A stretch of DNA of 64,000 nucleotides, from the NCBI GenBank assembly GCA_001275005.1, contig JWZX01003001.1, forward strand, positions 1 to 64,000, in the 5' to 3' direction. The notes under the pieces were generated by a model. The model made no database searches, was not told the origin of the DNA, and saw only the letters and a list, made by a program, of their open reading frames with translations. The position numbers and the translations under genes were made by a program. How positions within the stretch are numbered: the first letter of the stretch is position 1; each line of letters begins with the position of its first letter. Of this stretch, positions 3,053-63,997 are shown piece by piece. The stretch comes from Chrysochromulina tobinii (taxonomy: Eukaryota; Haptophyta; Prymnesiales; Chrysochromulinaceae).

Positions 3053-3251
3053 GATAGTCGATTGCGCTCGCACGCGCTCGCGGCGGCCTGCTCGTGTGTG
3101 CGTGGCGACTAGAAGTTCGGAACTTGACGAACATGGAAAGTGGTACAACACTTTGCAGCCGTCCGGTCTCCATCGGTAGGGCCATCGCCGCTCAAATTCA
3201 CGGATCGCTTCACAGACTTGACGACAGGAGGTGTGATCAGGAATTGTTCGC

Positions 3252-7146: not shown

Positions 7147-10100
7147 ATGGCCGCTTGTGGCCTCGTGGCGCTCAAACTTGGCGGCATTGCTGGGTGCGAC
7201 GGCGGTTCTGCGGCCTCCTCTGCAGCTGTGAGCGCCGAGGATGCAACGATCGCAGCGCTCAAGGCAGTGCTCGCAGCCAACGAGGCCAGGTCCAAGTGCG
7301 CAGTCAGCACATTCTCGAGCAGCGAGGATGAAGGCGATGATGATGGTGGTGATGATCGCAGCTCCGGCAATGTGAACAGCCAGCTGGCTCTCGCCACACC
7401 AGCGGTTGGTCTGAGGCTGAATCTGGGCGGTCTCGGCGTAGGCAAGCTCAACCTGAGTGCGCTGCAGCGCGAGGAGGTCGATGACGAGGCTCCGGCTGCC
7501 GTCCCAATGACTCCCAAGGAGACCTTCTTGAACACCGCGCTTGGCGCGCCGCCGCCGCCGCCGCCGCTGTCCGAGGCACCGCCACCGCCCTCTGCCGCTG
7601 CTGCTGCGCCGGGGCCCAGCCACGCCGCCGCCGCCACCGCCCTCTGCCACGCCGTCGTTCCCACGGGCGGCAGCGCAGCGGCGGCGCCTGTCCTCGGGTT
7701 GCACACGCGGCCCCTCGGGGTGCACTACGGCCGTGTGCTCCTCGAGGAGCTCGCGAAATTGCCGCCGCTCGCTGTGCTCCCGTCGGCGACCTCGACCGCC
7801 GCGGCCTCGGCAGCCCTGCGTAGCGCACTGACGATGTCTGAGACGATCACCGACCTCGCGAGCCGATGCTTCGATCTCCAAGCACGAGATCCCGTACCTG
7901 AGGGCTCCAAGCACGTCTCCAAGCACGTCTCCAAGCACGACTCGGAGCTCGAGCGCGCGCCGTCCTTGCGCTCGTCCTTGCGCTCGACCGAGCTCGCTCG
8001 CTCGCAATCCATCCGACCGCCTCGCCTGACGGCCCTCGGTGAGTGGCGACAGCACATGCGCTGGTACGGCATGATCGTCGAGCAACAGTCGTGGGAGGCG
8101 CCCGATTCCGCGCGCACCACGTACCTGGACGCTCTGCGTAAGCTCGACAACGAGCTGCAGCGCGTGCACCCGACGTTTGACCAGTCCCGCGACACGCCCG
8201 CGCCGGGCACGCCGGAGCAGCTGACCTCGCGGCTCGAGCTGCTGCACGAGCTGCACGAGATCGCGATCTCAATCAATCTCGAGCTCCTCTCCCAAGTTCA
8301 GCTGCCCGACGAGATGGCGCGCGCGCACCTGCCGTCGCGCGCCGCGCCGCTGCTGCCGCGCACCCTTGCGCGCGAGCTGCGCACCCTCGCGCGCGAGCTG
8401 CGCGCCGTGTCGAGCGCCTCCTCGACGGCCCGGCTGCCTACGGGCGCGCTCAGGACGACGCTGGACGCGCTCCTCGATCGCCTCGGTCTCGAGAGGCTTT
8501 CCCCACAGCTAGCTGCCGAGCTGCTCGATCGTCTGGAGAGGGCGGCGGAGGTGTGGCAGTGCTCAGCCGATAGGGGGGCCGAGCGCCTCGCGGCCGCTGC
8601 TGACCCCCCCTCGGTGGGGGTGGGGGAGAGGCCGCGACGACGCAACGCGAGCACCGATGTGACACTGGTGCGCCCGACACGGCGCTCTCCGGACTCCTCT
8701 CTCGACGACCGGCCGGAGCGGCCGCTGCGCACCCCCTCGATTCTGCTCGCGCGCATCTCGCGCGAGCGAGCTCCGGGCGCCGCGACGGGCGCCGCGACGG
8801 GCGCCGGGGCAGGCGCCGGGTCGGGCGCCGTGTTGGGCGTCTCCGGCGTCGGCGGGGATGGCCTCGGGGGGGGAGATCTGAGCGCTGGCCGTAGCACTCG
8901 ACGCTCGCGTTGGTGGAGCCTTCTGGGACGTCTCCATGGACACCCTGACGAACTGCGCGCGGCGAACAAGGCGCTCGTTGCGCGTGCTCTCGCAGTCCGC
9001 ATCCGCACGCGGCTGCCCTCGCTGCCCCCGACGGGGCTGGAGCGTGCAAAGGTGGCACACACGAGCTCCGTCGCCAATGCGATGCTCGAGGCGTACTCGC
9101 GCGCTCTTGCGATCCATTCGCAGTCGGCGGTTCGTCACTACGCTAGGCTGCGCCAGAGTGCGATCCAGGCGGCCGCCGCCGCCGCCGCGACTCTCGCCAT
9201 CGCGACCCTCAACGCCGCGGCGGCGAGTCCGACCGGCACCGGTACTCCTACCGGTACTCCTACCGGTAGCAGCGCTGTCGTGGGCACCGCAACCTGTAGC
9301 ACCGACCTGCAGTCCGTCGACAGAGCTGTCGGGGCCGACGACGCCTTCGCGAGCGGCGCGGGTGGCGAGCGAGTACAGGCCGCGGCCAACGGGCACAGCT
9401 CACCCGCCCCAGCTCTGCCCATGGCCATCGCGCCCATCTCGGCGCCTAACTTATCGCCCACCGTCACCAGTGCAGCGGCCGCCGAGACTTTCAGCGGCGG
9501 CGGCGGCGCTTTCAAACTGAAGCTGCACCTCCTTGACAAGCCGTTGGCTGACGGCTTGGGCGAGCACGCCCACGACGGCGCGGGCGCGCCCAGCGGCGCG
9601 TCGTACGCATCGCTGTCCAGCAGCAGCAGCGGCGGCGGCGGCGGCGGCGGCGGCGCAGCCCCGCGCACAAGCAGCAGCAGGAGCAGCAGCAGCGCAGGTG
9701 CACGCGAGGGGCCATCCCGCTCGCCTCTCGAGTCGCCCAAGTCCCCCAAGTCCCATCACATGGGCGACGCCCGCCCCAAATGGCAAGTACGCCCCGACGA
9801 GATCAGCTACTTGGAGCGGCTAGGCGCGGGAGCCTACGGCGAGGTGCACCTCGGCGAGTTTCGTCGAAAGGAGGTGGCAATCAAGGTGCTCGTGCACGGC
9901 GATCTGCACGAGGACGACTTTTACGAGGAGATGGCCTTGCTCTCGGACCTGCGCCATGAGAACATAGTCCTCTTCATGGGAGCTTGCCTCGCGCCCTCCA
10001 AAATGTGCATCCTCTTCGAGCTCTGCGAGCCCGTCAAGCATGCATATGCTCACTACGGCGCCCCGACCTCTTCCCCACAGGTGCATCCTCTTCGAGCTCT

Positions 10101-12303
10101 GCGAGGCCTCTCTGTACGACCTTCTCTACAGTCCCGAGTCGCCCTATCCCGTGGGCACTCCGCTACCGGTACCCGAATTCGTCAAGCTGCTGCGTGAGGT
10201 GGGCGCTCGGGATGGCGCCTTGTTCCCCTCTTGAGTGCCCTCTGAGTGCCTGTGCATGCAGGTGGCGCTTGGGATGGTGTATCTTCATTACTCTGAGTGC
10301 CTGTGCATGCAGGTGGCGCTTGGGATGGTGTATCTTCATTCGATGGAGCAGCCGCTGCTCCACTTAGATCTCAAGAGCGCTAACGTGCTCCTCGACAAGA
10401 ACCGTACCGCTAAGGTGTGTCCCTGATGACCTCTGATGACCTCTGATGGCCTCTGATGACCTCTGATGAGATTCTCGACAAGAATCGTACCGCTAAGGTT
10501 TGCGGCTTCAGCACGCGGATAGGTCGCCCTGGTCGACATGCCTCGGCGAAGATTGCCGCAGATTGCCGCCGATTGCTGCTGCGAGTCTGAGCGCCACAGA
10601 TTGCCGCCGCGTGTGCCCCTGCTGCTCCCTGCTGCAGGTGTGCGACTTTGGCATGTCACACGTGCTCGAGGACGCGGCCTCCGCCGCCGCCGAGACGGGC
10701 ATGGGCAAAGGCATGGGCTCTCCGCAATGGAGCGCGCCTGAGAAGCTGCGAGGCGGCGCGTATGACGAAACGGCGGACTCGTACTCGTACGGCATCGTGA
10801 TGTTCGAGGTGCTGAGCCGCTCGCTGCCCTATGCCGGGCGCGACCAGTACGAGCTGATGATCGGTATCATCACGCGCATGCTGCCGCGCCCGGCACTCAC
10901 CGACGAGCAGGCGCAGCGTTGGCCCCGCCGGCTGCCCAACCTGATGGCTCAATGCATGCGGGAAGAGCCCTCCGAGCGGCCCGACTTCAACGAGGTGCGT
11001 GATTGCCGCGGATGACCGCTGATGGCTACTGATTGCCGCTCGCCGTGATGGATTCGCTCGAGGTCGGGGTGCTTGATTGCCGCTGATGACGCCCCCTGAG
11101 TGAATGGACCGCTGATTGCGAGTCCAATCATCTTACGTCCTTTGTCCTATGACGAGATCATTCTCCTTACACCTACCAAATTTGGAAATGAGGAGTGGAA
11201 CAATCGATTAGTCTTTCGGAGGACCTAGGCTCATGCATTCCCTGACCAACTGCCACTCTGAAGGCGCATGCATTCCCTGACCAACTGCCACGCTGATGGC
11301 CCTCTGATGGCCCTCTGATGGCCCTCTGATGGCCCTCTGATGGCCCTCTGATGGCCCTCTGATGGCCCTCTGATGGCCCTCTGATGGCCCTCTGATGGCC
11401 CTCTTGCATGCCTGCCTGCAGGTGCTCGACACCCTCAACACCCTCTTTGCACGTGACAAGCGCGGCAGCATCGTAGGCAGCGCCTTCGTCTCCGAGGCTG
11501 GCGGTGCAGGGTCAGCATCAGCATCAGAATCAGCATCAGCATCAGCATCAGCACCTGCCATATTAGGGTCGACATCAGCACCGGCCTCGGCGGAGCCTCG
11601 CAACGCCCCCCGCGATGGCCTCACTGCCACGTCGCCGGTCCTCCTGTATGCATCCACGCCCTCTGTGCGGCTGCCGCGTGCACGCTCAATGGTGGTAGGC
11701 AAGCGGCAGGTGGCGGAGCTGCGACACGAGCTCGTCAGCAGCCAGGCGCCATCGTCGCCTGGCACGCCCCCCGCTACGCCCGCCGCCACGCCCGCCGCCA
11801 CGCCCGCCACGACGCCTTTCGAGGAGGCAACCACGGAGGCAGCCACAGCGCCAGAGCCCATGGCGGCGCCGGCGCGAACGGCGTCGTCGGCTCCTCCGAC
11901 ATACAACCGCCATACAACCGACATACACCCGGGACATACAACCGACATACAACCGTCGTCGGCTCCTCCGCGGCAGCAGCTGCGCATCGAGGTGCCGCAG
12001 CACGACCGCGCCAAGGATGGCCAGGCGATCTTCGTGATCGCCTGCCAATGCGATGGGCAACGTTGGACTGTCGTTCGCAAGGAACGCTCCGTCAGCGAGC
12101 TGCATGCTGCCCTCCAGCCGCTACTCCACTTTTTGCCCGACCCTCCACTCGAGAAGCGCGGCTGGTTCGGGCGGGGCACGGCGGGGCTGGCCACACAGGC
12201 GCAGCGGCTGCAAGAGTATCTGACCGAGCTCACGCGCGATGGGCAGTGGGCATTGGACGATCGGCGCGTGCTGGCGCGGTTCCTCGACGTGCCGCCGCGG
12301 TGA
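7147..12303 (+). CDS. TKL-like protein kinase with C-terminal PX domain
   Basis: Exons 7147-10004, 10081-10198, 10313-10414, 10638-10994 and 11422-12303 join to 1438 residues. The first 880 residues are Ala/Pro/Ser-rich and mostly disordered. The kinase domain starts near 881: glycine loop GAGAYGEV, Lys913 in VAIKVL, HLDLKSAN (1009-1016; Leu replaces the Arg of HRD), DFG at 1029-1031, and an APE-like SAPE. Sequence style is tyrosine-kinase-like (Raf/MLK group). After a disordered linker, residues about 1332-1437 resemble a PX phosphoinositide-binding fold (WTVVRKERSVSELH, then QRLQEYL and FLDV), which would bring the kinase to membranes. Exon joins follow domain continuity and GT-AG ends. The intron after exon 2 has a usable alternative acceptor. 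Kinase call firm; PX call good but by eye. Confidence 0.85.
10005..10080 (+). other. Kinase intron 1; 5' end duplicates the next exon
   Basis: 76-nt GT-AG intron, phase 2. Its first 25 nt (GTGCATCCTCTTCGAG...) are identical to the first 25 nt of exon 2 at 10081-10105. Unspliced reading shifts frame right after the kinase hinge region, so removal is needed. Confidence 0.85.
10199..10312 (+). other. Kinase intron 2 with duplicated acceptor
   Basis: 114-nt intron from GTGGGCGCTCGGGATGG to TGCATGCAG. A 51-bp unit (CTCTGAGTGCC...GCAG plus the first 28 nt of exon 3) is tandemly duplicated, so a second acceptor exists at 10261. Its use would add 17 residues in frame (VALGMVYLHYSECLCMQ). The intron 5' end is itself a degraded copy of the exon 3 start. 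Confidence 0.8.
10415..10637 (+). other. Kinase intron 3 carrying a decayed exon-junction copy
   Basis: 223-nt phase-0 intron, GTGTGTCCC...CTGCTGCAG. It opens with CTGATGACCT-type repeats. Around 10472-10515 it contains a degenerate copy of the spliced junction itself: the end of exon 3 (CGACAAGAATCGTACCGC) followed directly by the start of exon 4 (GTTTGCGGCTTC). Confidence 0.8.
10995..11421 (+). other. Kinase intron 4, repeat-filled
   Basis: 427-nt phase-0 intron, GTGCGTGATTGCC...CTGCCTGCAG. It holds GATTGCCGCTGATG units, a 25-bp direct repeat (11232-11256 and 11267-11291, starting CATGCATTCCCTGACC), and about ten copies of an 11-mer CTGATGGCCCT at 11292-11404. Confidence 0.8.
11292..11404 (+). 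repeat. 11-bp tandem repeat (CTGATGGCCCT)n
   Basis: About ten near-perfect copies inside intron 4 of the kinase gene, running almost to the acceptor. Confidence 0.9.
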
Positions 12304-42979: not shown

Positions 42980-44772
42980 CTAGCAGCAGCGCGTGTCGTT
43001 CGGATGGTCGCTTGGGAACTCGTCGAAGCTCGCAAAAGAGGTGCCGCCGAGCCATTTGGCGTAGCCGGTGCATGCATCCGGCTGCGCAAAGGAGCGGAGG
43101 TCGTGCGAGGCGGTGCAGCGCACCTTCGAGCCCCGATACGAGCCACCCCATCCAGGCGGACCGAGGGTCGCACTCGGCTCCGGCGGATGCACGCACGTGC
43201 TATTATCCTCGGTGAGGTAGTGCCGCGCGAACCACGTCTCTCGCGCGTAGTGCCGCCACAGGTCATCCTCGCAATCAATGCGCACGGCGCCCTTGCCGGC
43301 TCTGGGCGTGAAGCGCTGGCGCTTGGAGTAGCCTCGCAGCAACTCGGCCATGAACTTGGTCACCTCGGCTATGTCGAGCGTGGCCAGCCGAGCACGCCCC
43401 GCCTGTGCCACCGCGCGCGCGTACGAGTCGTTCCGCCGTAATCGCTCCACCATGGCGGGCACGTCAGCCGCCGTGGGGACCGTCACGTAATGGACCCCTG
43501 GTAACAGCCCATGCTCATAAAACTCCTTGTGGGTCATGCCGTCCTGCACGTAGATCACGACCGAGCCGCAGAGCAGCAGGTACTTGAACTTGTTCGCGTA
43601 CCCAATGGACGCCGAGTTGAGCAGGTACTTGTACCGGCACTGCTGCTGGAAGGTCATGTAGCACAGATGCTGCTGGAAGCCACCCTTGCGCTCGAGGCCG
43701 AGCTCATGGCACGTGCGCCGGATCTTATTGTGATCGCCAATGAAGAGCTCGTTCACAAGCATCGTGTCCGGATGCGAGCCGGCGACCAAGGCCAGCCGCT
43801 TTCGGAAGGGTGAGCCTACGTTGCCCGTGTGCATCGCGAGCTCAATCTTGTCCTCCCAGCGCACCGCCGCCGACTGATGAGAGAGGCAATCAGAGACCGA
43901 TGAGAGAGGCAATCAGAGACTATCAGATGGCCTCGGATGGCAATCACCTGCGCGAGCATCTGCGGGTGCAGGATCTTCCAGGGCGGCGTGCGCAGCTTGT
44001 GGTCCTTTTGCGGCATGAAGAAGCTGAAGTCGAGCCACGGCAGATCGAGGTGGTGTCGCGAGATCGTCGACGAGAAGAGCGGCGGCGGCAGGTCAGCGTC
44101 AGGACGGCGCGTCGCACCGGCGGCCTTGGGGCGTGCGGTGCCCGGGTACGCGGCGCAGAGCCGGCTCCAATATTTCGGGGTCACGAACGTCTTGATCCGA
44201 GGCTCGTCAACGGCCGCCACCACGAGATCGACATCGGGCAGGTTGGGATGCCGTCGCAGCGTCTCGAGCAGAGGCAGCACGCGAGACGGCGCGTAGTACC
44301 GGTCGTAGAAGATGGCGCGGTAATCGGTGATGTAGAGATGGCCGCCGATGACTTGCGCGCGCAGGCAGTACATCGTGCCATTGTCGTCGCAGGTCCTGAC
44401 AGCAGCTTCAAGCATATGTTCGGTGACCTGATCAAAGGGCAGGAGGAGCTCGTGCACCAGAATGCTCCAGTCCCAATGCCCGTGAACATCCACGGCTGCC
44501 GAGAGCTCCTCACCAACAATCGCCCCAGCGGAGCTACCTGCCGACCTGCCAGAGGCCTCTCCGCTGTCACACGGCCTCGCCAGTGGCGGCGGAGCTGCCG
44601 ATGCTGAGAGTTGCTCCAGCCGCGCAAGCTTGGCTCTTAGCTTCGAGTTGGAAGCTCGCAGGAGTTCGATCTCGCGCGATTGGCTGTCCACCTGGCCGCG
44701 GATGACCACTGTCACGAGCAGGCCGACACAGGTGCCGAGCACCGCGAAGAACCACTCTATCTTCGTCGGCAT
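42980..44772 (-). CDS. GT90 (CAP10/POGLUT-like) glycosyltransferase, type II membrane protein
   Basis: Exons 44772-43948 and 43873-42980 (minus strand) encode 572 residues. Residues about 7-25 are a signal anchor (WFFAVLGTCVGLLVTVVI), followed by a short coiled coil (EIELLRASNSKLRAKLARLE). The catalytic part has the CAP10/GT90 signature: YLLNSASIGYANKFKYLLLCGSVVI, then FYEHGLLPGVHYVTVP. Family members transfer glucose or xylose to proteins or polysaccharides in the ER and Golgi. About 120 residues after the CAP10 core (CVHPPEPS to the end) are Cys-containing and unassigned. The start was chosen so the anchor is N-terminal; an upstream in-frame ATG at 44889 would add 39 residues. Confidence 0.85.
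43874..43947 (-). other. GT90 gene intron, CTGATTGCCTC type
   Basis: 74-nt phase-0 intron, GTGATTGCC...CTCATCAG, with two tandem copies of TCTGATTGCCTCTCTCATC in the sense direction, the last running into the acceptor. Confidence 0.85.
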
Positions 44773-44964: not shown

Positions 44965-47412
44965 ATGTCTGCCGACGGCCGCGAGCCAGCCATTGCTCAA
45001 CTATCCGAGCCCGAGCTCGATACCTTAGAGCAGCTGCGTAGCAAAGGCGATAGAAAGGCTCTGCATGAGCGGCTCAAGTCCCTCGGCTTTGCAACGCTTG
45101 GCGCACGCCTTCGCGCTGACGCTTGTCTTCAACATCGCTCCGAGGCATCGGCGGCGCTGCGTACCACGCCACCCACTGCGCCGCCGTTTTCGCCGACGAT
45201 AGCGTCAAGCGGTGCCCCGTCTGCATTGCACACCATGCCGCCGCCGCCGCCATCCGTGATCGACACCAACGACACCGACCTGAGTGCGGAGCAGTGCACA
45301 TTGCTGCTGCGGGACCTGCTGCGCAAGTACGCGGAGCCCGAGTTCCGCGCCATGCTCGACGAGACACAGCGCTCATTTAAAGGCCTGGGCGAATCGGGCC
45401 TCTCCGAGCCCATCTGGGCTCATCTGGCTCCGATATTGCTGCGCGTCCAGGCCCCCGTGCTCGCGAAGTACGGGCTGCCTCCTAGTCCGACGGGAGTTGA
45501 GCTGATGAAGTTTGCCATCCACCGGCGCATCGCCGAGGGCGCGACCGAGCTGCAGCCGCTCGCCAACGAGGCGCGGCGCGTGCTTGGCTTGCAGCCGTTG
45601 CCCAACACGCGCATGCAACGGGTGGAGGACCTCCTCGCTCAGATGGCCGAGATCACATCTCATGCAGATGCAATCTCGCGCCGCACCGAGATCACATCTC
45701 GAATAGATACCATCAATAGGGTTCATCCCATTGGGGGACGGCCGAAGGCGTGCGGCGCAGTGCACGTGGCGCTGGATGCGAAGCTGCAAGCTGCTCGGAC
45801 CTCAGGGAAGCTGGCGCCGCCCGCCACGGCGCTCCTCGAGTCGATCGTGGCGCACCTCTCCCCTTCGCTGGCATCGTGCCTGGTGGCGATGGCGACTGCA
45901 GGCTTACCGGTGGCCGCACTGCGCTCCGTCGCCGCTGCCGACGTATCGACGGACCCGCTTCGGGCGTCGTCTCGGGCGCTGCACGAGGTACCCGTGCTGC
46001 ACAGCCTGCCGACGGCCGCCGCCTTTTTCACCGCGCACGTGCTGCCGTCGCTACCGGCAGTGCTCCGAGGGGTGGTGAACGCGCAGACGTTTCCGCCGAT
46101 GGCGAACTTTCCGAATTTGGGCTACTTGCGCCGCCGATGTGCCCACCGGCGCGTGCCCGTCAAGTCCCTCGCTCTCGAGGACCAGGAGGGACGACCCGTC
46201 TTTGTGAGCGAGCCGAGCCTTGACGATAGAGGAGATCTCCTCGACTCCTTGATCTCCTTGATCTCCACCGATCTCCACCGATCTCCACCGATCTCCACCA
46301 ATCTCCACAGGTGAGCGACCCCGAGATCAAGATGCCTCTTGTTGGCTTCCTGAGCGCCGTCGAGGGGTCGGAGGCTTCGGGCAAGCGATGTCCCTTTTAC
46401 CTTGGGAAGGTGGGATTGCACACTGATGACTACTGATGACTACTGATGATTACTGATGACTACTGATGTCTGCTGATGACTGCTGATGACTACTGATGAC
46501 TACTGATGACCTCGCCCAATCCTGATCCCGCGACATCTCGCGACACGTGGCCACTGATTGGCTCTCTGATGGGCTCTCTGATGACTACTGTACTGATTGG
46601 CGCTCCGATGGGCTCTCTGATAGGTTCCGCTGCGCGCTGAGCTGCCCGAGCTCGATGAAGACCTCGCGGGATCGCCCTGCCTGCCCGTTACGGCGCTCGC
46701 ACCCGAGTGCTTCGGCTCGCTCAATAAGGAAGGTGTGTACACCTACTTTGGGTGCGACCGCAATGTGACCGCCACCCACTTTGACGGGTACGAGAACTTG
46801 CTCGTGTGCCTGAGTGGCACGAAACGGTTGTGGCTCTACCCGCCCTCTGACGCGCGCTATTTATACGCTGGGGCCGGGGCCAAGGGCGATGCTTCGCGCG
46901 CGGCCGCGCCGCCGTTTCAAACGTTCGAGCAGCTGCCCGCCGAGCTGCGCGCAACCTTTGGCGACGTGGCGCACGCGCGCCCTCTCGAGGTGCATCTCGG
47001 GCCGGGAGATTGCCTCTACCTGCCCGCGTGCTGGTGGCACTGCGTCGAGGGCTCGCGCGAGCGTAACATGATCCTCAACTGGTGGTTCGACGTGCACGAT
47101 AAGAAGCGCAATCACGAGGGCGAGCTTCCGAGTCTCGATCACCGCAATCACGAGGAGGGCGAGCTTCCGAGTCTCGATCACCGCAATCACGAGGAGGGCG
47201 AGCTTCCGAGTCTCGATCACCGCAATCACGAGGAGGGCGAGCTTCCGAGTCTCGATCACCGCAATCACGAGGAGGGCGAGCTTCCGAGTCTCGATAACCG
47301 CAATCACGAGGGCGAGCTTCCGAGTCTCATTAACGGTCTTGAGAGGGAGAGAGCCTTTTTGGATGACGGCCCCGTGTTGGCTGCTCTCTGTGCACCTCCT
47401 GCTCCTGCATGA
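44965..47412 (+). CDS. JmjC/cupin-8 Fe(II)-2-oxoglutarate oxygenase
   Basis: Exons 44965-46203, 46311-46409 and 46624-47412 encode 708 residues. Residues 1-330 are helical and unassigned, with a Pro-rich stretch. The JmjC region begins near 345 (LPAVLRGVV). Iron ligands are His498 and Asp500 in TATHFDGYENL and His585 in ACWWHCVEG, and LSGTKRLWLYPP is typical of the JMJD7/TYW5/FIH-like cupin-8 subgroup. Such enzymes hydroxylate proteins or RNA. After the domain, four to six copies of a 13-residue unit (RNHEEGELPSLDH) come from a 39-bp DNA repeat. Exon joins restore EGRPVF-VSDPEIK and FYLGK-VPLRAEL. Ligands are intact, so activity is expected; substrate unknown. Confidence 0.85.
46204..46310 (+). 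other. JmjC intron 1; 5' end resembles next exon
   Basis: 107-nt phase-0 intron starting GTGAGCGAGCCGAG and ending CTCCACAG. Exon 2 starts GTGAGCGACCCCGAG. The interior is CTTGATCTCC/ACCGATCTCC tandem units. Confidence 0.8.
46410..46623 (+). other. JmjC intron 2, CTGATGACTAC array
   Basis: 214-nt phase-0 intron, GTGGGATTGC...TCTGATAG, mostly sense-strand CTGATGACTA and CTGATGGGCTCT units. The acceptor itself is in a CTGATAG unit. Confidence 0.8.
47107..47330 (+). repeat. 39-bp coding tandem repeat
   Basis: Units CGCAATCACGAGGAGGGCGA... repeated five to six times in frame in the last JmjC exon. Near-identity at silent sites implies recent expansion. Confidence 0.9.
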
Positions 47413-48622: not shown

Positions 48623-51600
48623 TCAACCTGGGTTCGAATTCTTGGAGGGGGACTTACAACAACGCCAATGACGTGGTTCAAGGTAATAATACTGGCCATC
48701 AGTCGATTGATAACGGAGAGGAAGGGAAGGAAAACCAGCCGCCCTGCCCTCTTCGTAGGTGAAGCCGGCCTCATAGCATTCCCTCCCAGCCTTGAAACCA
48801 GCCGCCCTCGCGTCCTTGCAGGTCGACAGCAAGTCAGCATCCTTCGCGTCCTTGCAGGTGAATCCAGCCTCCCTCGCGTCCTTGCAGGTCGACAGCAAGC
48901 CAGCCTCCTTCGCGTCCTTGCAGGTGAACCCAGCCTCCCTCGCCTCCTTGCAGGTCGACAGCATGCCAGCCTCCCTCGCGTCCTTGCAGGTGAACCCAGC
49001 CCTTCTCGCGTCCCAGCAATCGAACCCAGCCTCCTTCGCGTCCCAGCAGGTGAACCCAGCCTCCTTCGCGTCCTTACAGGTCCACAGCATGCCAGCGTCC
49101 TTCGCGTCCTTGCAGGTGAACCCAGCCTCCCTCGCGTCCTTGCAGGTGAACCCAGCCGCCCTCGCGTCCTTGCAGGTGAACCCAGCCCTTCTCGCTTCCT
49201 CGCAGGTGAACCCAGCCCTTCTCGCGTCCCAGCAATCGAACCCAGCCCTTCTCGCGTCCCAGCAATCGAACCCAGCCTCCTTCGCGTCCTTGCAGGTGAA
49301 CCAAGCCGCCTTCGCGTCCTTGCAGGTGAACCCAGCCTCCTTTGCGTCCTTGCAGGTGAACCCAGCCGCCTTCGCGTCCCAGCAGGTGAACCCAGCCTCC
49401 TTCGCGTTCTTGCAGGTGAACCCAGCCTCCTTCGCGTCCTTGCAGGTGAACCCAGCCTCCTTCGCGTTCTTGCAGGTGAACCCAGCCTCCGTCGCGTCCT
49501 TGCAGGTGAACCCAGCCTCCTTCAGCGCGGTGAACCCAGCCGCCTTCGCGTCCTTGCAGGTGAACCCAGCCTCCTTCGCGTCCTTGCAGGTGAACCCAGC
49601 CGCCCTCGCGTCCTTGCAGGTGAACCCAGCCTCCTTTGCGTCCTTGCAGGTGAACCCAGCCTCCCTCGCGTCCTTGCAGGTCGACAGCATGCCAGCCGCC
49701 CTCGCGTCCTTGCATGCATAGCCCGCCGCCATGGCCACCTTCAGCGCGATCTGGAGCTGCGCCGCCGCGTACCCAGCATTGGCAGCGTCCGCCTTGGTAA
49801 AGCCGCCGCGCAGGATCTCAGACAACACGTACCCTGCCTCCATGACGGCCTCCAGCTGAAAGCCCGCCTCCTTGAGGCCCTCGACATAGTTAGCTCGCTT
49901 GACCTCCTCCAAAGTATAGCCCGCGCTCTTGGCCTCGGCGCATGTCAGCCCCGCCGCCTTGACCTCGGCACACGTGTAGCACGCCCTGATCTCAAACCCG
50001 GCGGTCTTAGCCTCACGTGCCGTATAGCCAGCTTGCTGGACCTCCTCCAAAGTATAGCCCGCTCTCTTGGCCTCGGCGCTTGTCAGCCCCGCCGCCTTGA
50101 CCTCGGCGCACATGTAGCCCGACTTGATCTCGTACCCGGCGGCCTTGGCCTCACGTGCTGTATAGCCAGCTCGCTTGACGTCTTCCACCGTGTAGCCCGC
50201 GGTCTTCGCCTCGGCGCATGTGATCCCCACCGCCTTGAGCCCCTCGATGTAACCTTTGGCTCGTAGCTGCTTCAGCGTCAGGCCTGAGTCCAGCGCATCC
50301 TTCAGGGCCTTCTCCGCTCTCGCCGCCGCCACCGCCCTCTCCTTCTCCATTCTCTTCGCGTACGCCTCCTCCGACTCGGAGCATAGCCCAAAGCAATAGC
50401 TCTGCATCTCGGCGGGCGTGGGCTCGGAGGCAGGGGATTTCCCCGTAAGACTCTCGCGCTCCATGGCCAAGGGTGCGACCGGCGGCTGCGGCGTGGGCTT
50501 GGACACCGCCTCCGGGCTGAGGACCCGCACCTCGTCCCACCTGTACCCAGCGGTCCACGCGGCTCCGTCGGGCTGCACCATCAGCGGCTCCACGGACATC
50601 ACCGTGCCGACTTGCCAGCTCTGGCCGCGGTCGCGGCACTCGACGCGTTCCTTGAGTGTAAAGCGTAGCGGCGGGGGCTGCGGCGGGGGCTTGGTTGGGC
50701 TCGCCAGGGGCTGCGGCGTGCCCTCGGCCGCAGCATTCCAGTTGTGGCCCGTGAGGCTGGGCTTCGCCGCCGAGGCAGCCTTCTCGCCGGCCGCGCTCGT
50801 CGGGAACTCCCACTGCGTCTCGCGCGTCGCGGTCTTATAGTAGTATGTCTTTCCGCTCGTCGGATCCGTCACCGAGCCCCAACCCTGTGGCAGCTGCTCG
50901 GAGGCAGCGGCGTTCTCCGGCACACCCTCGCGCAAGGGGTTGACCCAGAACAGGCTCCCGACCTTGTCGCGTGCAGAGTTGATGAAGCGCGAAATCCGGT
51001 TGTCTAAAATCGGGCTGTCCGCGATGCGCAGATCCTTGTCAGAGCACATCTCTTGCGCCCCGCCAGAGCCACGCTCTCCGAGCTCCACCGTGTACGAGTC
51101 CTTGGCGGCATCGTACGTCGTCACATAGCCTGAGACTTCCTCTCCGTGACCTCGATTCACGTACACGCGGCTGCCGAGGGGGAAGCGCGTCCCATCTGAC
51201 GGCTCACCCGAGGACTTGGGGGGAGGCGGCGCCGGTGCCGCCGTGGGTGGCGTTGGCGCATCCACTGGCGTCGGAAGATACTGGTCAATCTGCGCCATGA
51301 TGTCTTTCAGGGCATTGGCTCGGTTGAGCACCGTGCCGGGGTTGGGTATGTTGTTGAGCTTGTTAAGTTTGGACTGTACGCGAAATTTCATCATCTCCCA
51401 CTCCTGGTCGTCGAGGTTCGTCCACTGGTCCTCTTTGGCGGGCAGCTTGTCCTCAAAGCGCACAGGTAGGAGAGCGATCTTGTTCTCGATGGCCGTGCTG
51501 ATCTCTTTCAGGCACGGCCTAGACTTGTACAAGGCCGCGGTGAGGACGACGATGAGCACCTTTGGCTTCTCACGCTTCCCGTTCTCGCCAGTCAGGCGCA

Positions 51601-51895
51601 GCATGAAGGTCTCCCAGTCCACGCCGGGGGGCACTTGCAGCCCGGAGAAGCACTGCAGGCCGCGCTCGTGGAGAAAGTCACTCATCCCCTTGGCGTACAC
51701 CACCCCGGGCCCAGAGCCCTCGCAGTCGCCAGGCCGGCGGCCGGACGCATACGACAGGACAAGGGAGGGGTAGAAATCTTCGTACTTGGTGCCCCTCGGA
51801 AGATGCGTGCACACTTCGCGCTTACATTCCTCCAGCTGCTCCAGTGTGATCGCATCTGGCACGACGAAGCGGCCCTCGTGTAGAACCAGCTCCAT
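48623..51895 (-). CDS. TIR-domain protein with WW domain and decapeptide repeats
   Basis: 1090 residues from ATG 51895. The frame is open another 75 codons upstream without an ATG, so an upstream exon is possible. TIR domain about 44-207: LVLSYAS, GLQCFSGLQVPPG, VLIVVLTAALYKS, then RPCLKEISTAIENKIALLPV. Glu131 aligns with the catalytic glutamate of NAD-cleaving TIRs such as SARM1 (HKEIVTAL). Next come an SH3/Tudor-like barrel (RVYVNRGHGEEVSGYV), a WW domain at about 336-366 (LPQGWGSVTDPTSGKTYYY...W) and a second barrel-like segment. From about 535 to 1065 runs a tract of 10-residue repeats, AGFTCKDAKE type. WW and repeats suggest protein scaffolding; TIR suggests signalling or NADase output. 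Function is inferred. Confidence 0.8.
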   Translation of the reverse strand: MELVLHEGRFVVPDAITLEQLEECKREVCTHLPRGTKYEDFYPSLVLSYASGRRPGDCEGSGPGVVYAKGMSDFLHERGLQCFSGLQVPPGVDWETFMLRLTGENGKREKPKVLIVVLTAALYKSRPCLKEISTAIENKIALLPVRFEDKLPAKEDQWTNLDDQEWEMMKFRVQSKLNKLNNIPNPGTVLNRANALKDIMAQIDQYLPTPVDAPTPPTAAPAPPPPKSSGEPSDGTRFPLGSRVYVNRGHGEEVSGYVTTYDAAKDSYTVELGERGSGGAQEMCSDKDLRIADSPILDNRISRFINSARDKVGSLFWVNPLREGVPENAAASEQLPQGWGSVTDPTSGKTYYYKTATRETQWEFPTSAAGEKAASAAKPSLTGHNWNAAAEGTPQPLASPTKPPPQPPPLRFTLKERVECRDRGQSWQVGTVMSVEPLMVQPDGAAWTAGYRWDEVRVLSPEAVSKPTPQPPVAPLAMERESLTGKSPASEPTPAEMQSYCFGLCSESEEAYAKRMEKERAVAAARAEKALKDALDSGLTLKQLRAKGYIEGLKAVGITCAEAKTAGYTVEDVKRAGYTAREAKAAGYEIKSGYMCAEVKAAGLTSAEAKRAGYTLEEVQQAGYTAREAKTAGFEIRACYTCAEVKAAGLTCAEAKSAGYTLEEVKRANYVEGLKEAGFQLEAVMEAGYVLSEILRGGFTKADAANAGYAAAQLQIALKVAMAAGYACKDARAAGMLSTCKDAREAGFTCKDAKEAGFTCKDARAAGFTCKDAKEAGFTCKDAKAAGFTALKEAGFTCKDATEAGFTCKNAKEAGFTCKDAKEAGFTCKNAKEAGFTCWDAKAAGFTCKDAKEAGFTCKDAKAAWFTCKDAKEAGFDCWDARRAGFDCWDARRAGFTCEEARRAGFTCKDARAAGFTCKDAREAGFTCKDAKDAGMLWTCKDAKEAGFTCWDAKEAGFDCWDARRAGFTCKDAREAGMLSTCKEAREAGFTCKDAKEAGLLSTCKDAREAGFTCKDAKDADLLSTCKDARAAGFKAGRECYEAGFTYEEGRAAGFPSLPLRYQSTDGQYYYLEPRHWRCCKSPSKNSNPG
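48790..49715 (-). repeat. 30-bp coding minisatellite (AGFTCKDAKE)n
   Basis: About 30 units of a 30-bp repeat. On the plus strand it reads GTGAACCCAGCCTCCTTCGC followed by GTCCTTGCAG. Most units are nearly identical; earlier units (to about 50.3 kb) are diverged. Several other frames are open only because of the repeat. Confidence 0.92.
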
Positions 51896-52552
51896 GAGAC
51901 AGCCTTCGCGCGTCCACGTCCAGCGAACGCTGCCTTCTTCCTTGGGGACCCCGCTCTTGCCACGAGACAGCCTTCGCTCACGACCTAAGCTGCTCTTCGA
52001 TGCCGCGAGAGTGCACAGGGCCTCTCGGAGGCGTGCGTCCACAAAGTTTTTCTTTCGGTTTCGTCCCAAAATTTCGTTACTTTTACTCAAAGTGAGGAGC
52101 CCCGTCCAACCAACCCACACTCCTTGATCATCGCGTTCAGCTGCCTGCGCAAGCGAGCGCTGCGGCGGGCGATAGGTCCCGAGGGACGCCCACCCGATCG
52201 CGCAAGGTATGCACTCACATATACGGTTCGCCGGCGCGCGCTTCTTTCACTCGCCGTGGCGTACGGTACTGTCTACTGAGATACTGTACCGTAGCGGGTC
52301 GAAACGCGCACAATATTATCAAAGATTCGTCGAACGTATGCGGCAGAAATCCAATTGTGCAATTGACGTCCCGGTGACAGAGCGAGAGACGTCGCTCGTA
52401 CGAACCGGAACATACAGGACAAACTACACACAAGCGAAGTTGCAACTTGGATCGGATTAGGGCCATCGATAAGGGACGGGAGGCTCGCTGTTCCACGACG
52501 CGGCGAAAACGTGCAGCACACCTCCTCACTAGCTCTTGCCGCTTTCTCTCTC
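51896..52552. other. Intergenic between TIR gene and ORC2
   Basis: Possible upstream exon of the TIR gene at 51896-52120 (open frame, no ATG), then about 430 bp without a gene. A segment of about 30 bp at 52249-52279 resembles 47483-47510. Confidence 0.45.
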
Positions 52553-55431
52553 TCACTTGCCTTCCGCCTCGACGATGGCCTTCATCGTGTCGCCTGGCAG
52601 CGAGCACCAGTAGCATTGCTGGCCGCCGGTGCCCGAGCGTGTGCGCACGAGGTGGTGATCGAGGAACTCGGCGATGTGTTTCTTGAGTGCGACCTGCACG
52701 ACGCGGCGATGATTGGGAATCCGAGGCGAGCAGAGGCGATCAGAGGCGATCAGAGGACATCATAGGCCATCCGAGGCCATCAGAAGCAGTTAGGTGGCAG
52801 GTAGGTGGCAGTTAGGTGGCAGTGCACACCTCATTGCTCGTGGCGTACACGGCGCGTGAGCGCTTATAGAGCTCCTCGAAGGAAAGTCCGGGCGCCTTCG
52901 GGTGTTCGAGCTGGAACGTGAGCAGGAGCGTGAACACCTTGCGGGCGTTACTCGTGAGCGCATCGAGCACAATCTGGGCCGATCTCCCCTCGGTGCCTAC
53001 TGCTGAGTCGAAGAGGCTGCCTAGCAGCTCGTGGATCGAGTCGACCGCCTCATGAGCGTAGGAGAGGCCGGTCGGTGCCTCGACCCACGCCCAGTTGAAC
53101 GCGCGCGCCTTGCGGGAGTCCCAGAGCGACGCCGCGTACCGATGGGAGCATGAGGCGATCACATGCACCTGAGGGGAGGGAGAGGCGCCGTGGTGAGCAC
53201 TGGCATGCACTTGCATGCACTTGCATGATGGGAGCATGCGATCACATGCACCTGTGGGATCGAGGCGATAGATGCATGCAGGATGCACAGGTGCATGCAT
53301 CCGAGTGCATGCATGCAGAGCACAGCGGGATCGAGGCGATGGGAGCATGAGGCGATCACGTGCACCTGTGGGATCGAGGCGATGGATGCCAGGAGAGCTT
53401 GCGCTTCGTCACTTCGCATTGCTGGGCCATCGATGGAGTGCACCACTATGTAGACGTGCGACGGCAGTGTACTCGCCGCCGCGCGACGGTGCGCGAGCGA
53501 GCCCGCGGCCGCGGCCGCCGCGACGCGTGCACCGCCCACCCCACCCGCGCCGCCGTACCCGCCGTACTCGACAAGGTCGAAGGCGTTCGGCGACACGAGA
53601 TGGCTCGGTGCCGGAGCACTGCGCAGCCGGCGGCAGACCCCCAGCCGTTGGGCAGGGGAAGGCTCCAAGTACTCGTCCATTCGCCTCGACCCGGACGGAG
53701 CGCCGTCTCGAGCGCCCGCCGAGCCCGGCGCCTGCTCACGGCTCGCGAGGACGCGCAGGTGCTCACGACGACGCTTGCGCGAGTCGGGCCCATCGGCGAC
53801 GCGTCCGGTGATCGACTCCCCCGGGCCTGCGTCCTCAGAGGCGATCAGAGGCGATCAGAGGCGATCAGAGGCGATCAGAGGCGATCAGAGGCGATCAGAG
53901 GCGATCAGAGGCAATCAGAGGCAATCAGAGGCGATCAGAGGCAATCAGAGGCGATCAGAGGCGATCAGAGACGATAAGAGGCGATCAGAGGCGATCAGAG
54001 GCGATCAGAGGCGATCAGAGACGATCACTCAGCAGCGATCACCCAGCGGCACTCAGATGCAATCAGCGGCTGCCCACCTGAGTAATGCTCCGAGTCCGCG
54101 AGCTTACGAAGTTGACGAAGCACGCGCCGCTCGCGTACCGACGGTGAAGGCGCGACAGATTCCACACGGACGGCCGCCTCCGCCGCCGCCTCGGCCGCCG
54201 CCTCGGCCTCCGCCTCCGCCTCCGCCTCCACCTCGGCGTCCACCTCGCTGAGATCAAAGCGAGCACCGGGCGCCGCCATGGGCGCCGCCGCTCCCGCCGC
54301 CGCCGCCGTGGGCGCCGCAGGAGTGACCGAAGCGAATGTGGCGCCGGGTGCGGCGCCGTTGTGAGCGCCCGCGGCCGAGGCGGGCGCCGAGGCGGGCGCC
54401 TCCTTCGCGGTAGCTGTGAGTGACAAGGTGCGCATCCCAACGTTCGCAGGGGTGGCGACTGGCGGCGCGGCCATCTCCTCGGCCATATTCTCCGCCATAT
54501 TCTCCGCCATCTCCTCCGCCATCTCCTCCGCCATCTCCTCCGCCATCTTATCGGCGGTTACGCCTCGGATGCCGTTGAGAGCTGGAGCATTCACATTCAC
54601 ACCCGCGCCGCCTCCTGTGCTCGCTTCGGCGGCGCCGGCGCCTGCCCCCGACGCGGAGCCGTCTGCCCCGGCGCTCGCCACACCGGCTGGAGCGTCTGCC
54701 CGAGCCTCGGCTGCGCCGAGCGGCGTCGGAGGAACATAAGCGAGTGCGGGCGGCAGATTTGGGCGGCCGGCGGCGGTCGGGAGGAGGCGCAGAAAGTGCT
54801 GCAGCCCCACGCCCTGCGGCGCGGCTGGCGCAGCCGGCGGCGCGGCGGCCGTCCGGAAGGCCTGCCGCACCTGATTGCACAGCGCGCGCGTCGTACCCGT
54901 CGGCGTGGCAGGAGTCTTGAGCACCTGAGTCAGGAGCAAGACCAGCAGCTCGCGCAGTCGTGCGCCGCTCGTGTAGCCCTGGAGCACAAGCACCGGCGTC
55001 TCCGGACCGTCGAGGCCGGACGCAAAGTCCTCGAGCAGCTCCTTTTTCGAGCCGAAACCGTGCAGCAAGAGCGAGAATCCGCCGTGCAGCATCGCAAGCC
55101 ACTCCGGGTAGCTGCGCGCATGGCGTTCGCGCGTCTCCGCCGGGAGCGAGGAGGGGCGGCGCAGCAGTTCGTGCACCGCACTTGCCAGCTCCTGCGGGCC
55201 GCCGCCGGGAAGATCGCACAGGCGCTTTTTATTGGCCGCCAGCCGCTGAGCCCTCCGTGGGTTGCGCTGCGCCGCAAAGTAGGCATTCGCCACCCGTACC
55301 GCATTAGTGCCGTCGTCCTGCTCGTCGTCCTCGTCGTCTTCGTCGGCTTCGTCCAGCAGGTCCTCGTCGGCGTCGTCCTCGTCGTCACGCTCTTCCACCT
55401 CGTCGGCTCGCTCCTCATCGTCGTCGGACAT
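52553..55431 (-). CDS. ORC2: Origin recognition complex subunit 2
   Basis: Exons 55431-54078, 53826-53366, 53168-52830 and 52693-52553 (minus strand) encode 764 residues. ORC2 is part of the complex that marks replication origins and loads the MCM helicase. An acidic Asp/Glu N-terminus (about 1-40) is followed by the ORC2 core start: WLAMLHGGFSLLLHGFGSKKELLEDF. Low-complexity insertions (Ala-rich, AEEMAEEM, Glu/Ala) occupy about 225-450. The core resumes with HVYIVVHSIDGPAM, SIPQ-VHVIASCSHRYAASLWD and FNWAWVEAPT. The last exon gives the C-terminal winged helix (VALKKHIAEFLDHHLVRTRSGTGG), matching the family's ...FLDHKLIRTKKG end. All four exons join in frame at GT-AG ends. The insert makes it longer than usual. 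Confidence 0.9.
52694..52829 (-). other. ORC2 intron 3
   Basis: 136-nt phase-0 intron, GTGTGCACTGCC...GTCGTGCAG, with sense-strand TCTGATCGCCTC/TCTGATGGCCTC units. The next exon starts GTCGCACTC, similar to the intron start. Confidence 0.8.
53169..53365 (-). other. ORC2 intron 2 with three copies of the exon 3 start
   Basis: 197-nt phase-0 intron. Its first 29 nt (GTGCACGTGATCGCCTCA...) match the first 29 nt of exon 3 at 28 positions. A middle copy, preceded by ATCGCCTCGATCCCACAG exactly like the upstream exon end, lies at about 53230-53270. CATGCAAGTG repeats fill the rest. Confidence 0.85.
53827..54077 (-). other. ORC2 intron 1, (CTGATCGCCT)n
   Basis: 251-nt phase-1 intron, GTGGGCAGCC...GACGCAG. 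It is almost entirely about 20 copies of the sense-strand decamer CTGATCGCCT with CTGATTGCCT variants. Confidence 0.85.
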
Positions 55432-61914: not shown

Positions 61915-63997
61915 TCATGCCCCTAATTTGGCAGGCGCGGAGCGAGTGACGCAGTGGCGCCGATGGGAGCCGAGGCCGGAGATGGATTCAAATGGTCGCC
62001 CGCACGCGTCGCATATGAAGTTGCCGAAGGCGTCAGGCAGAACAGGGCCGGAATGACCGTTTCGATAGCGTGAGCCGCACGCAGAGCATAGGGTGCCTGA
62101 TCCACTCGGACCTGGTTCCTTGCCGCTCGTCTCTTGCCGTTTGCACTCGCACCACTCGCAGCGCCACTGGCCGCCGTCACAATCGCGGGAGTGTATACCC
62201 AGCGCGCGGAACGACTCGAAGGTGCGCTCGCACCGTTCGCAAGGGTAGCGCCCGTTGGCGTCCGTGGGCGGCACCGCGACATGCCCCGCGCGAAAGCGCG
62301 ACGAGCATAGAGAGCACAGCGTCCCGCCGCCGTCTGGGCCCGGTCCCTTGCCGCTCGCCTCGTCCGCCTTGCACTCGCACCACTGGCAGCGCCACTGGCC
62401 GCCGTCGCAGAAGCGGCGGTGGCTGCCTAACCCCATGATGAGTTCGAACCCCTTGCCGCATTTGTCGCACACATAGAGACCCTGATCATTCTTGGGCGGC
62501 GGCCCCGAATGGCCAGCGCGATGGCGAGCGCCGCAAGCGGAGCAGAGAGTGCCTCCGCCATGTGGACCCGGCGCCTTGCCACTCGTCTCGTCTGCCTTGC
62601 ACTCGCACCACTGGCAGCGCCACTGGCCGCCGTCGCAGAAGCGGCGGTGAACACCGAGCCCAGGGATGTTGTCGAACGTCTTGCCGCACTTGTCGCACAT
62701 GTAGAGACCCTGCCCAGTTAAGGGAGGTCATCAGAGAGGCCATCAGGGTCAGGGAGGTCATTAGGGAGGTCATTAAGGAGGTCATCAGAGAGGCCAGGTC
62801 ATCATGGCGTACCTGCTCGTTCTTGGGCGGTGGCCCGGAATGACCGTTTCGATAGCGCGAGCCGCACGCGCCGCAGAGGGTACCTGAACCATTAGGGCCT
62901 GGGCTCTTTCCACTTGTCTCGTGCGCCTTGCACTCGCACCACTCACAGCGCCACTGGCCGCCGTCACAGTCGCGGGAGTGTATACCCAGCGCGCGGAACG
63001 ACTCGAAGGTGCGCTCGCACCGCTCGCAAGGGTAGCGCCCGTTGGCGTCCGTGGGCGGCAACGCGACATGCCCCGCGCGAAAGCGCGAGGAGCACATAGA
63101 GCACAGAGTGCCGCCGCCATTTGGGCCCGGCCCCTTGCCGCTCGTCTCGTCCGCCTTGCACTCGCACCATTGGCAGCGCCACTGGCCGCCGTCGCAGAAG
63201 CGGCGGTGCGAGCCAAGACCCATGATGCTCTCGAAGGTTCGTTCACACTTGTCGCACACGTACTGCCCGGCCTCGTTACGAGGTGGCGGGCCAGCAGCAC
63301 CACCCTTCCAGCGCCCGGAGCATGCAGAGCATAGCGTCATTGCGCCAGCAGGCCCAGGCCCCTTTCCGTTAGAATCTTCCCATTTGCATTCGCACCACTG
63401 GCAGCGCCACGCGCCGCCGTCGCAGAAGCGGCGGTGGCCGCCGAGGTGTTTCATCGACGAGAAGCCCCGATGGCACGAGGCGCACAGGAACTCACCCTTG
63501 TCGTTCTGCACGGGCATGCCGTCGGCGCCGTGCCGGTAACGCTGGCTGCACGCATTGCAAAGCGTCTTGATCCCATTAGGCCCTGTTGCCCTATGGCTCG
63601 TCTCTGCCTCAGTGCAGTTACACCACTCGCACGCCCACGCCACCGAGCGGCCTTCGCAGAAGCGCGCGTGCGCGAAGAGACCGATGCGCGCCTCGTACGC
63701 CGCGCCACACGCCCGGCAACGCCACGCGCCGTCCGCCGACTTGCGCGCGTCCATGTCGACAGGCACCACCACCGGCAGCACTCCGCTGCGCCTGCCGCGC
63801 TTGGGCGTGAGCGATGGTGGCAGCAGCCATCGCTTGAGAGCGCGCGGCGCGCCATCGTCCGGCGGCGCGGCGGCGGCGGCCGCCGCCGCCGCGGCCGCCG
63901 CATTGCCGCCAAAGTACGCGATGCCGCCCATGCCGCCGCCGCCCCCGCCACCCTCATCGTCCTCAATGCCGTCTATATGCAGCCCAAGTCCGGTCAT
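61915..63997 (-). CDS. Tandem alternating C2HC and GATA-like zinc-finger protein
   Basis: Exons 63997-62813 and 62709-61915 (minus strand) encode 659 residues. The ATG lies three bases from the window edge, so the N-terminus may extend further. After Gly- and Ala-runs come eight C-x2-C-x12-H-x3-C fingers (YVCDKCERTFESIMGLGSHRRFC type). They alternate with seven GATA-like fingers, C-x2-C-x20-C-x2-C (WRCQWCECK...GPGPNG..TLC.AC..R), each with an extra Cys (CEC). GATA fingers bind GATA-type DNA or partner proteins; the C2HC units are degenerate C2H2-type. A DNA-binding nuclear role is likely. Neighbouring modules are close to identical in DNA, indicating recent expansion of the two-finger unit. 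Confidence 0.8.
62710..62812 (-). other. Finger-gene intron, CTGATGACCTC type
   Basis: 103-nt phase-0 intron, GTACGCC...AACTGGGCAG, filled with sense-strand TCTGATGACCTCC/TTAATGACCTCC units. It is the only intron here starting GTA rather than GTG. Confidence 0.85.

What the first reader, a model, noticed from the sequence alone, without database searches (positions are those of the whole stretch)
53827..54077. A sense-oriented CTGATnnCCTC oligomer fills introns of unrelated genes
Seven introns in five genes share the same family of 10-12-mers: kinase introns 3 and 4, JmjC intron 2, ORC2 introns 1 and 3, the GT90 intron and the finger-gene intron. Variants include CTGATGACCTC, CTGATCGCCTC, CTGATTGCCTC and CTGATGGCCCT. 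In every case the motif reads in the direction of the transcript, though the genes lie on both strands. CTGAT fits a CTRAY-like branch point, followed by pyrimidines. The arrays may supply redundant branch points, or be an intron-resident satellite constrained by splicing. I know of no description of this.
Basis: partly seen in the sequence, partly recalled or inferred. Interest (0 to 1): 0.88.

Follow-up and report, generated by a model that had tools for sequence, protein, structure and literature searches.

The report
Newborn introns built from branch-point repeats
In this alga a short sequence that looks like the splicing branch point is repeated inside introns in the gene's reading direction, and the introns that carry it look like inserted pieces that brought one splice signal along and borrowed the other from a duplicated bit of the gene.

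Summary
CTGATNNCCTC occurs 30 times in the window (0.65 expected) and 12,671 times in the 53-Mb genome (reversed-pattern control 99). In a motif-blind annotation of 306 kb, 176 of 176 intronic copies (35 introns) are sense; Pfam fixes the strand of the main genes. The organism is a haptophyte related to Haptolina.

The arrays are not a free satellite but the body of introner-type introns. The last unit is often part of a 20-nt 3' splice module, CTGATNNCCTCNNTCATCAG (1,185 copies, control 0), and 67% of these are followed by GT. At a part of the sites (8 of 20 and 9 of 39 in two samples) the intron begins with a copy of the downstream exon that starts with GT, followed by an element with branch point, pyrimidines and AG: a target duplication whose GT became the donor. 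A second family without the array (668 core copies) shows it at 14 of 22 and 10 of 13.

Introners are known, also in a Tara Chrysochromulina genome. New here: the branch-point concatemer body and duplications of 11-49 nt. Branch-point use is inferred; a benefit of redundancy is not shown.

The parts
53827..54077 (-). ORC2 intron 1; array 53835-54027 of about 19 x TCTGATCGCC fills most of it (18 CTGAT)
   Evidence: TRF period 10, 19.3 copies; borders from orthologue P0124; no antisense copy
52694..52829 (-). ORC2 intron 3 with a 10-mer array 52719-52784 and an 11-mer CTAACTGCCAC array 52786-52823; no internal AG
53169..53365 (-). ORC2 intron 2: second family (GTGCTCACCACGGCGCC...CCCCTCAG); first 29 nt copy the first 29 nt of the downstream exon (1 mismatch)
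10005..10080 (+). kinase intron 1, second family: 25-nt exact copy of the downstream exon + 51-nt element ending CCCCACAG
   Evidence: removal gives a continuous kinase domain
10199..10312 (+). kinase intron 2: head is a decayed copy of the downstream exon; part since duplicated in tandem (51 bp x 2)
10415..10637 (+). kinase intron 3; CTGATGACCT array 10423-10469
10995..11421 (+). kinase intron 4 (HMM borders); CTGATGGCCCT array 11293-11404, 10.2 perfect copies
43874..43947 (-). GT90 intron (HMM borders): 23-nt duplication of the 3' module; downstream copy ends CATCAG, upstream copy CATCGG
46204..46623 (+). JmjC/cupin intron with four neighbouring 9-12-mer arrays (15 CTGAT); acceptor position uncertain
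62710..62812 (-). C2H2-finger gene intron (HMM borders) with CTGATGACCTC/CTAATGACCTC units; no internal AG

Best explanation
These are introner-type introns of a haptophyte. A short element (36-48-nt core in the second family, about 35-100 nt in the array family) goes into an exon just before a GT and duplicates a stretch of the target, probably 25-50 nt at first. The element supplies the 3' half of an intron: branch point, pyrimidine tract and AG. The duplicated exon copy ahead of it supplies the GT donor, so splicing restores the reading frame. In the array family the element body is a head-to-tail run of a 10-12-nt unit, CTGATNNCCTC, equal to the branch point plus pyrimidine tract of the terminal module CTGATNNCCTCNNTCATCAG. 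Some introns also lengthen by unit slippage and by duplication of copy + element. Sense-only orientation follows because only that orientation gives a usable branch point, pyrimidines and AG; the reverse strand offers an AG twice per unit (ATCAGAGG). Shown: orientation, location, the shared terminal module, the GT after it, the exon copies at part of the sites, restored reading frames in two genes, a canonical U2. Inferred: splicing, branch-point use, mobility, its mechanism, and that sites without a visible exon copy once had one.
For: Sense-only: 176/0 in introns, 38/0 in the slices alone. Strand by Pfam: kinase, JmjC/cupin, GT90, ORC2, C2H2; L012, L013, L023, L029, L030 (in L009 the EF-hand exon lies far from the arrays of the same predicted gene). 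Terminal module: 1,185 copies, control 0; 798 followed by GT. Second family: 668 core copies; 346 with a TCCCCACAG end, 302 of them followed by GT. GT follows AG in 4.8% of 12,160 AGs in predicted exons. Copy of the downstream exon, score 10 or more: sample 1, second family 10 of 13, array family 9 of 39, other predicted acceptors 2 of 156 (both are family members my patterns missed), against 0.05-0.33 expected from swapped exons; sample 2, 14 of 22 and 8 of 20 against 0.03-0.07. Dropping hits whose left flank also matches by more than 6 nt (tandem copies of copy + element) or whose 'exon' is array-like leaves 9 of 13, 5 of 39, 12 of 22 and 8 of 20. Exact copies of 43, 32, 26 and 25 nt. Gapped alignment of 35 second-family sites from both samples: 26 with a copy, donor-to-core 39.6 +/- 6.5 nt, core 41.8 +/- 3.0 nt (no shuffled control). 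Array parts of introns hold AG 50 vs 188 expected and GT 49 vs 328; the rest of the same introns AG 330 vs 329, GT 310 vs 423.
Against: No RNA, no lariat data. 26 of 45 array-family sites show no exon copy by my measure (13 do, 6 lie between), and the two groups do not differ in run length of units (p = 0.5), so 'arrays grow with age' is unsupported. One third of terminal modules (387 of 1,185) are not followed by GT. One young element has no other copy within 3 mismatches; another only partial relatives, 89-95% over 37-44 nt. Master element and mobilising enzyme were not sought. The second-family motif is antisense to the called strand in 2 of 13 cases. AG/GT poverty of arrays is partly a property of one shared unit. 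14 of 20 slices hold no CTGATNNCCTC, and two hold a single exonic one; the assembly may hold more than one genome. Gene calls outside Pfam domains come from my own simple HMM. Sample 2 was picked by me from capped lists, not at random.
Confidence: 0.78

Rival explanations
1. In-situ slippage only: each intron's own branch-point/pyrimidine stretch expands locally; nothing moves between introns.
For: Explains sense-only and intron-only without transposition. Tandem periods 10-12 and long arrays show that slippage happens; GT90 has a local 23-nt duplication. 26 of 45 array-family sites show no exon copy.
Against: Does not explain a 20-nt terminal module in 1,185 places, GT after 67% of them, or copies of the downstream exon at intron heads. 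The second family has the same anatomy without such an array.
Confidence: 0.12
2. Selected redundancy: extra branch points raise splicing efficiency or robustness, and selection keeps long arrays.
For: Branch A invariant in 60 of 60 aligned units while the two N positions vary; arrays are poor in AG and GT.
Against: Array-family sites with an exon copy have runs of only 1-4 units in 11 of 13 cases; some units lie far upstream of the acceptor (kinase i3: last YTRAY 171 nt away). Donors of array introns are not weaker than others.
Confidence: 0.2
3. Stop-codon arrays: TGA in every unit at period 10 or 11 puts stops into all three frames, so unspliced messages are degraded.
For: TGA or TAA in most units; period 10 in 40 and 11 in 12 of 67 intronic arrays, periods that shift frame, while exonic arrays are 9 or 12 in 49 of 60.
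Against: One stop suffices; some arrays have units without TGA/TAA (CCGATCTCCA, TCGATCTCCT); does not explain the 3' module or the exon copies.
Confidence: 0.07
4. Free minisatellite that happens to lie in introns, or an assembly/binning artefact.
For: Uneven distribution: 14 of 20 slices without the motif.
Against: 0 antisense copies in introns and near absence from exons and unassigned DNA; 36 of the first 201 contigs hold the terminal module (counted from the capped list).
Confidence: 0.03

Closest known systems
[quoted passage not shown] 2022, PMC9860276; passages read)
   Same: Probably the same algal group; sequence-similar introns in unrelated genes; target duplication supplies one splice site; no inverted repeats reported for the example family.
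   Different: Their example family has 4-bp duplications and carries its own 5' splice site, taking the 3' site from the target; here the element carries the 3' site, the donor is taken, and the exon copies are 11-49 nt. They removed families with an abundance of short repetitive motifs by hand, so this array family would probably have been dropped. Whether this very genome was in their set is unknown to me.
Introners of Symbiodinium microadriaticum (same paper, figure legend)
   Different: 4-bp duplication with terminal inverted repeats; no branch-point array mentioned in the passages read.
Introner elements of Amoebophrya (PMC7789003; passages read)
   Same: Repeated introns with direct repeats at the exon/intron borders.
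   Different: 3-5-nt direct repeats, inverted repeats, many non-canonical splice sites; here GT-AG.
Intron gain by tandem genomic duplication (potato RdRp, PMC4974935; search listing only)
   Same: A duplicated exon stretch supplies a splice site.
   Different: Here only the 5' part of the intron is exon-derived; the 3' part is a family element.
Strand-biased intronic tandem repeats in Daphnia (PMC3152781; passages read)
   Same: Repeat motifs that prefer the sense strand of introns.
   Different: The examples in the passages are 1-4-nt T-rich motifs with a density bias, not a 10-mer branch-point-like unit without antisense copies.

Membership tests
Introner element | Highly similar introns at many unrelated gene positions in one genome | tested here: met
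   1,185 and 668 copies of the two family cores, reversed-pattern control 0; that they lie in introns was checked only in the fetched sample
Introner element | Bounded insertion with target duplication that recruits a splice site | tested here: met
   Copies of the downstream exon at part of the sites: 10/13, 9/39, 14/22, 8/20 against 0.03-0.33 expected
Introner element | Inserted copies of one element (transposition) | tested here: inconclusive
   One element unique within 3 mismatches; another with relatives 89-95% over 37-44 nt
Introner element | Terminal inverted repeats (present in some families only) | not tested
   No formal search made
Introner element | Mobilising enzyme or autonomous partner | not tested
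   No search made
GT-AG spliceosomal intron | GT...AG borders, reading frame restored on removal | tested here: met
   Kinase introns 1-3 and ORC2 introns 1-3
GT-AG spliceosomal intron | Removed from RNA | not testable with these tools
   No transcripts of this genome held
Branch point (yUnAy, recalled consensus) | Sequence match and invariant A | tested here: met
   A 60/60, T at -2 56/60 (units were aligned to a reference unit; 7 of 67 array units did not fit)
Branch point (yUnAy, recalled consensus) | Short set distance to the acceptor | tested here: inconclusive
   16 nt in the 1,185-copy module; in 39 predicted introns 16 nt in 6, 22 nt in 4, otherwise 3-249
Branch point (yUnAy, recalled consensus) | Pairing with U2 / lariat at this A | not testable with these tools
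   U2 with canonical GTAGTA is present; pairing and lariat need RNA work
Ordinary minisatellite | No preference for strand or gene part | tested here: not met

The most novel reading that the evidence does not exclude
New introns are born as branch-point concatemers. A polymerase that slips on, or copies again and again, one 10-nt branch-point/pyrimidine module writes the element while it fills a break with a 25-50-nt stagger, so each new intron carries its own variant array and its own exon copy, and no fixed master element exists.
Probability: 0.2. Interest if true: 0.92.

Novelty: new variant of a known kind. Interest (0 to 1): 0.75.

Why it matters
How genomes gain introns is a long-standing question, and proven young introns are rare. 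Here some introns still carry exact 20-43-nt copies of the exon they interrupt, so insertion site, direction and the origin of each splice site can be read from one genome. If the units are real branch points, this is a natural series of introns with one to more than thirty branch sites in one genome, which makes the value of branch-point redundancy directly testable. It also suggests that surveys which discard repetitive intron families may have overlooked a class of introners.

Tried and rejected
Weak donors compensated by many branch points: not supported; array introns have better, not worse, donors than other predicted introns, many of which may be miscalled. Arrays grow with age: not supported. 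An 8-nt target duplication, first suggested by five introns: superseded by the longer copies. A constant copy + element length as a mechanism: the trade-off (r = -0.77 in 17 of 21 cases) can be explained by decay of the exon copy, since in the second family donor-to-core and core lengths are each narrow. A second genome in the bin: codon and tetranucleotide PCA showed no clear split by eye; unresolved. Viral contigs: no match to three units in a row. Rfam on the window: none at gathering score. Literature (introners, haptophytes, intronic minisatellites, branch-point repeats): searches; no listed paper describes this array by title or abstract start, and I read passages of three (PMC3152781, PMC7789003, PMC9860276). 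The Emiliania genome paper is not held; I vaguely recall intronic 10-11-bp repeats reported with it and could not check.

Full report
What was claimed and what is there. Every one of these holds it, and the quoted interval is exactly intron 1 of an ORC2 gene on the minus strand: the orthologous protein P0124 aligns from SEHY(A/S)G into the next exon across it. The window holds 30 exact matches against 0.65 expected. The whole genome, 53.15 Mb in 2,253 contigs, holds 12,671 against 99 for the same pattern read backwards. The organism is a haptophyte: the closest named relative of the window's HSP70 is Haptolina brevifila at 72% identity, and a 99% match is known only from unnamed ENA contigs.

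Strand and location. To avoid circularity I wrote a small gene-finding HMM with three-periodic coding states, GT/AG introns and a strand-symmetric background shared by introns and intergenic DNA, so that array orientation cannot influence the call. On the window and 20 slices of 10 kb at regular contig numbers, intronic copies are 68 sense and 0 antisense; exons have 5 (all sense) in 178 kb and unassigned DNA 3 in 38 kb. Slices alone: 38 sense, 0 antisense in 12 introns. Adding slices chosen because they hold the motif: 176 sense, 0 antisense in 35 introns; exons 12 sense and 1 antisense; 11 in unassigned DNA. Pfam fixes the strand of the main array genes independently; in L009 the Pfam exon lies far from the arrays of the same predicted gene. 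Of 67 intronic tandem arrays with unit 9-14 (2.8 copies or more), 40 have period 10. 61 of 67 match the CTGATGGCCT unit at 6 or more of 10 places in sense and 26 of 67 in antisense; letter-shuffled units average 4.5-5.5 matches.

What the unit is. The array unit is the upstream part of a 20-nt intron end, CTGATNNCCTCNNTCATCAG, in which the branch-like A lies 16 nt before the end of the AG. That module occurs 1,185 times (control 0), and 798 of these are followed directly by GT. In predicted exons GT follows AG in 4.8% of 12,160 cases. Some introns end CCTCATTGCATGCAG instead, with a distance of 22 nt; in 39 motif-bearing predicted introns the distance is 16 in six, 22 in four and variable in the rest, some of which have wrong borders. 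Among 60 aligned array units the A is invariant, T at -2 and G at -1 occur in 56 each, and the two N positions vary (units were rotated to fit a reference, which favours matches at all positions alike). The U2 snRNA of this genome has the canonical GTAGTA stretch. The array parts of introns hold 50 AG where 188 are expected and 49 GT where 328 are expected; the rest of the same introns holds 330 AG against 329 and 310 GT against 423. Because most arrays share one unit, this is suggestive only.

A second family without arrays. Another set of introns ends in GTGCTCACCACGGCGCC...TCCCCACAG: 668 copies of the core, 346 with the full end, 302 of these followed by GT. Kinase intron 1 and ORC2 intron 2 of the window belong to it.

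How the introns arose. In both families some introns begin with a copy of the first stretch of the downstream exon, starting at GT. Clean examples, copy + element: kinase intron 1, 25 exact + 51; L013 8913-8991, 32 exact + 47; L012 2326-2395, 26 exact + 44; L029 3650-3737, 43 exact + 45; L009 8336-8412, 33 with one mismatch + 44. In sample 1 such copies (score 10 or more) were found at 10 of 13 second-family and 9 of 39 array-family sites, and at 2 of 156 other predicted acceptors, both of which are family members that my patterns missed; swapped exons give 0.05-0.33. Sample 2, regions I picked from the capped genome-wide lists, gave 14 of 22 and 8 of 20 against 0.03-0.07. In several hits the left flank matches as well (for example L005 1449-1520, L029 6237-6311 and 7829-7903): these are tandem copies of copy + element, a secondary step. 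Without them and without one array-like 'exon' the counts are 9 of 13, 5 of 39, 12 of 22 and 8 of 20. Allowing gaps, 26 of 35 second-family sites from both samples show a copy; the distance from donor to element core is 39.6 +/- 6.5 nt, the core 41.8 +/- 3.0 nt, the intron 81 +/- 6 nt (no shuffled control was run for this version). The upstream exon often does not end in AG, so the target need is a GT rather than a full AG|GT. Removing the introns restores one continuous kinase domain and an ORC2 protein. This is the anatomy of an insertion with a long target duplication: the element brings branch point, pyrimidines and AG, and the duplicated exon brings the donor.

Why only sense. With that anatomy the strand bias follows: the reverse orientation offers no branch point or pyrimidine tract and has an AG twice per unit. 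The bias is therefore evidence that the arrays pass through splicing, but it does not show that more than one unit is used. The second family's motif is antisense to the called strand in 2 of 13 cases, one of them inside an intron of L009.

Growth. GT90 shows a 23-nt duplication of the 3' module in which the upstream copy reads CATCGG instead of CATCAG. Several introns show copy + element repeated in tandem (L005, L029; kinase intron 2 has a 51-bp duplication). Long arrays reach 34 copies (L029). I found no link between a visible exon copy and the run of units, so whether arrays are written at insertion or grow later is open. One young element has no second copy within three mismatches; another has partial relatives at 89-95%.

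Mechanism. Insertion of a short element into a wide-staggered break or nick pair, with fill-in, best fits long and variable duplications; a transposase with a fixed short cut does not. An RNA-primed route, in which an excised intron's 3' end is copied at the target, would also explain why the junction at the AG end is precise, though selection for exact splicing would do so too. These are inferences.

Known and new. Introners are established. Gozashti et al. (PMC9860276; passages read, not the whole text) report them in a Tara Chrysochromulina genome, with 4-bp duplications and an own 5' site in the example shown. They give 3-9 bp for the target duplications of previously characterised families and state that they removed families with an abundance of short repetitive motifs by hand. 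The branch-point-array body and exon copies of 11-49 nt are not described in what my ten literature searches listed or in the passages I read; the library lacks most subscription journals.

Limits. No RNA. Gene calls outside Pfam domains come from my own HMM. The array introns are unevenly spread: 6 of 20 slices hold CTGATNNCCTC, two of these only one exonic match. The assembly may hold more than one genome. Confidence was lowered from 0.80 to 0.78 after the recount.

Noticed in passing
window 19549-20156: About 600 bp of AT-richer 10-11-mer repeats (TGTATCTTGAT, ATACATCAAG) in both orientations, in DNA left unassigned: unlike the CTGAT arrays.
   Followed up: no
window 48623-52246 (-): Long ORF with TIR, WW and a decapeptide-repeat region (Pfam PF25296, E 3.6e-128).
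   Followed up: no
window 3237-6854 (+): RNA-dependent RNA polymerase (PF05183) next to the PRONE/kinase gene.
   Followed up: no
L009 1502-1702: An intron that contains the second-family motif in antisense.
   Followed up: partly
L043: Exon copy that starts with GC instead of GT (GCGAGGGGT...), a possible GC-AG intron of the second family.
   Followed up: no
slices L009-L028: Array and second-family introns are concentrated in a few slices while others have none; mixed bin or real clustering.
   Followed up: partly
window 40494-40576: About six 11-mers TTCCGAGATGG in a stretch called exon.
   Followed up: no
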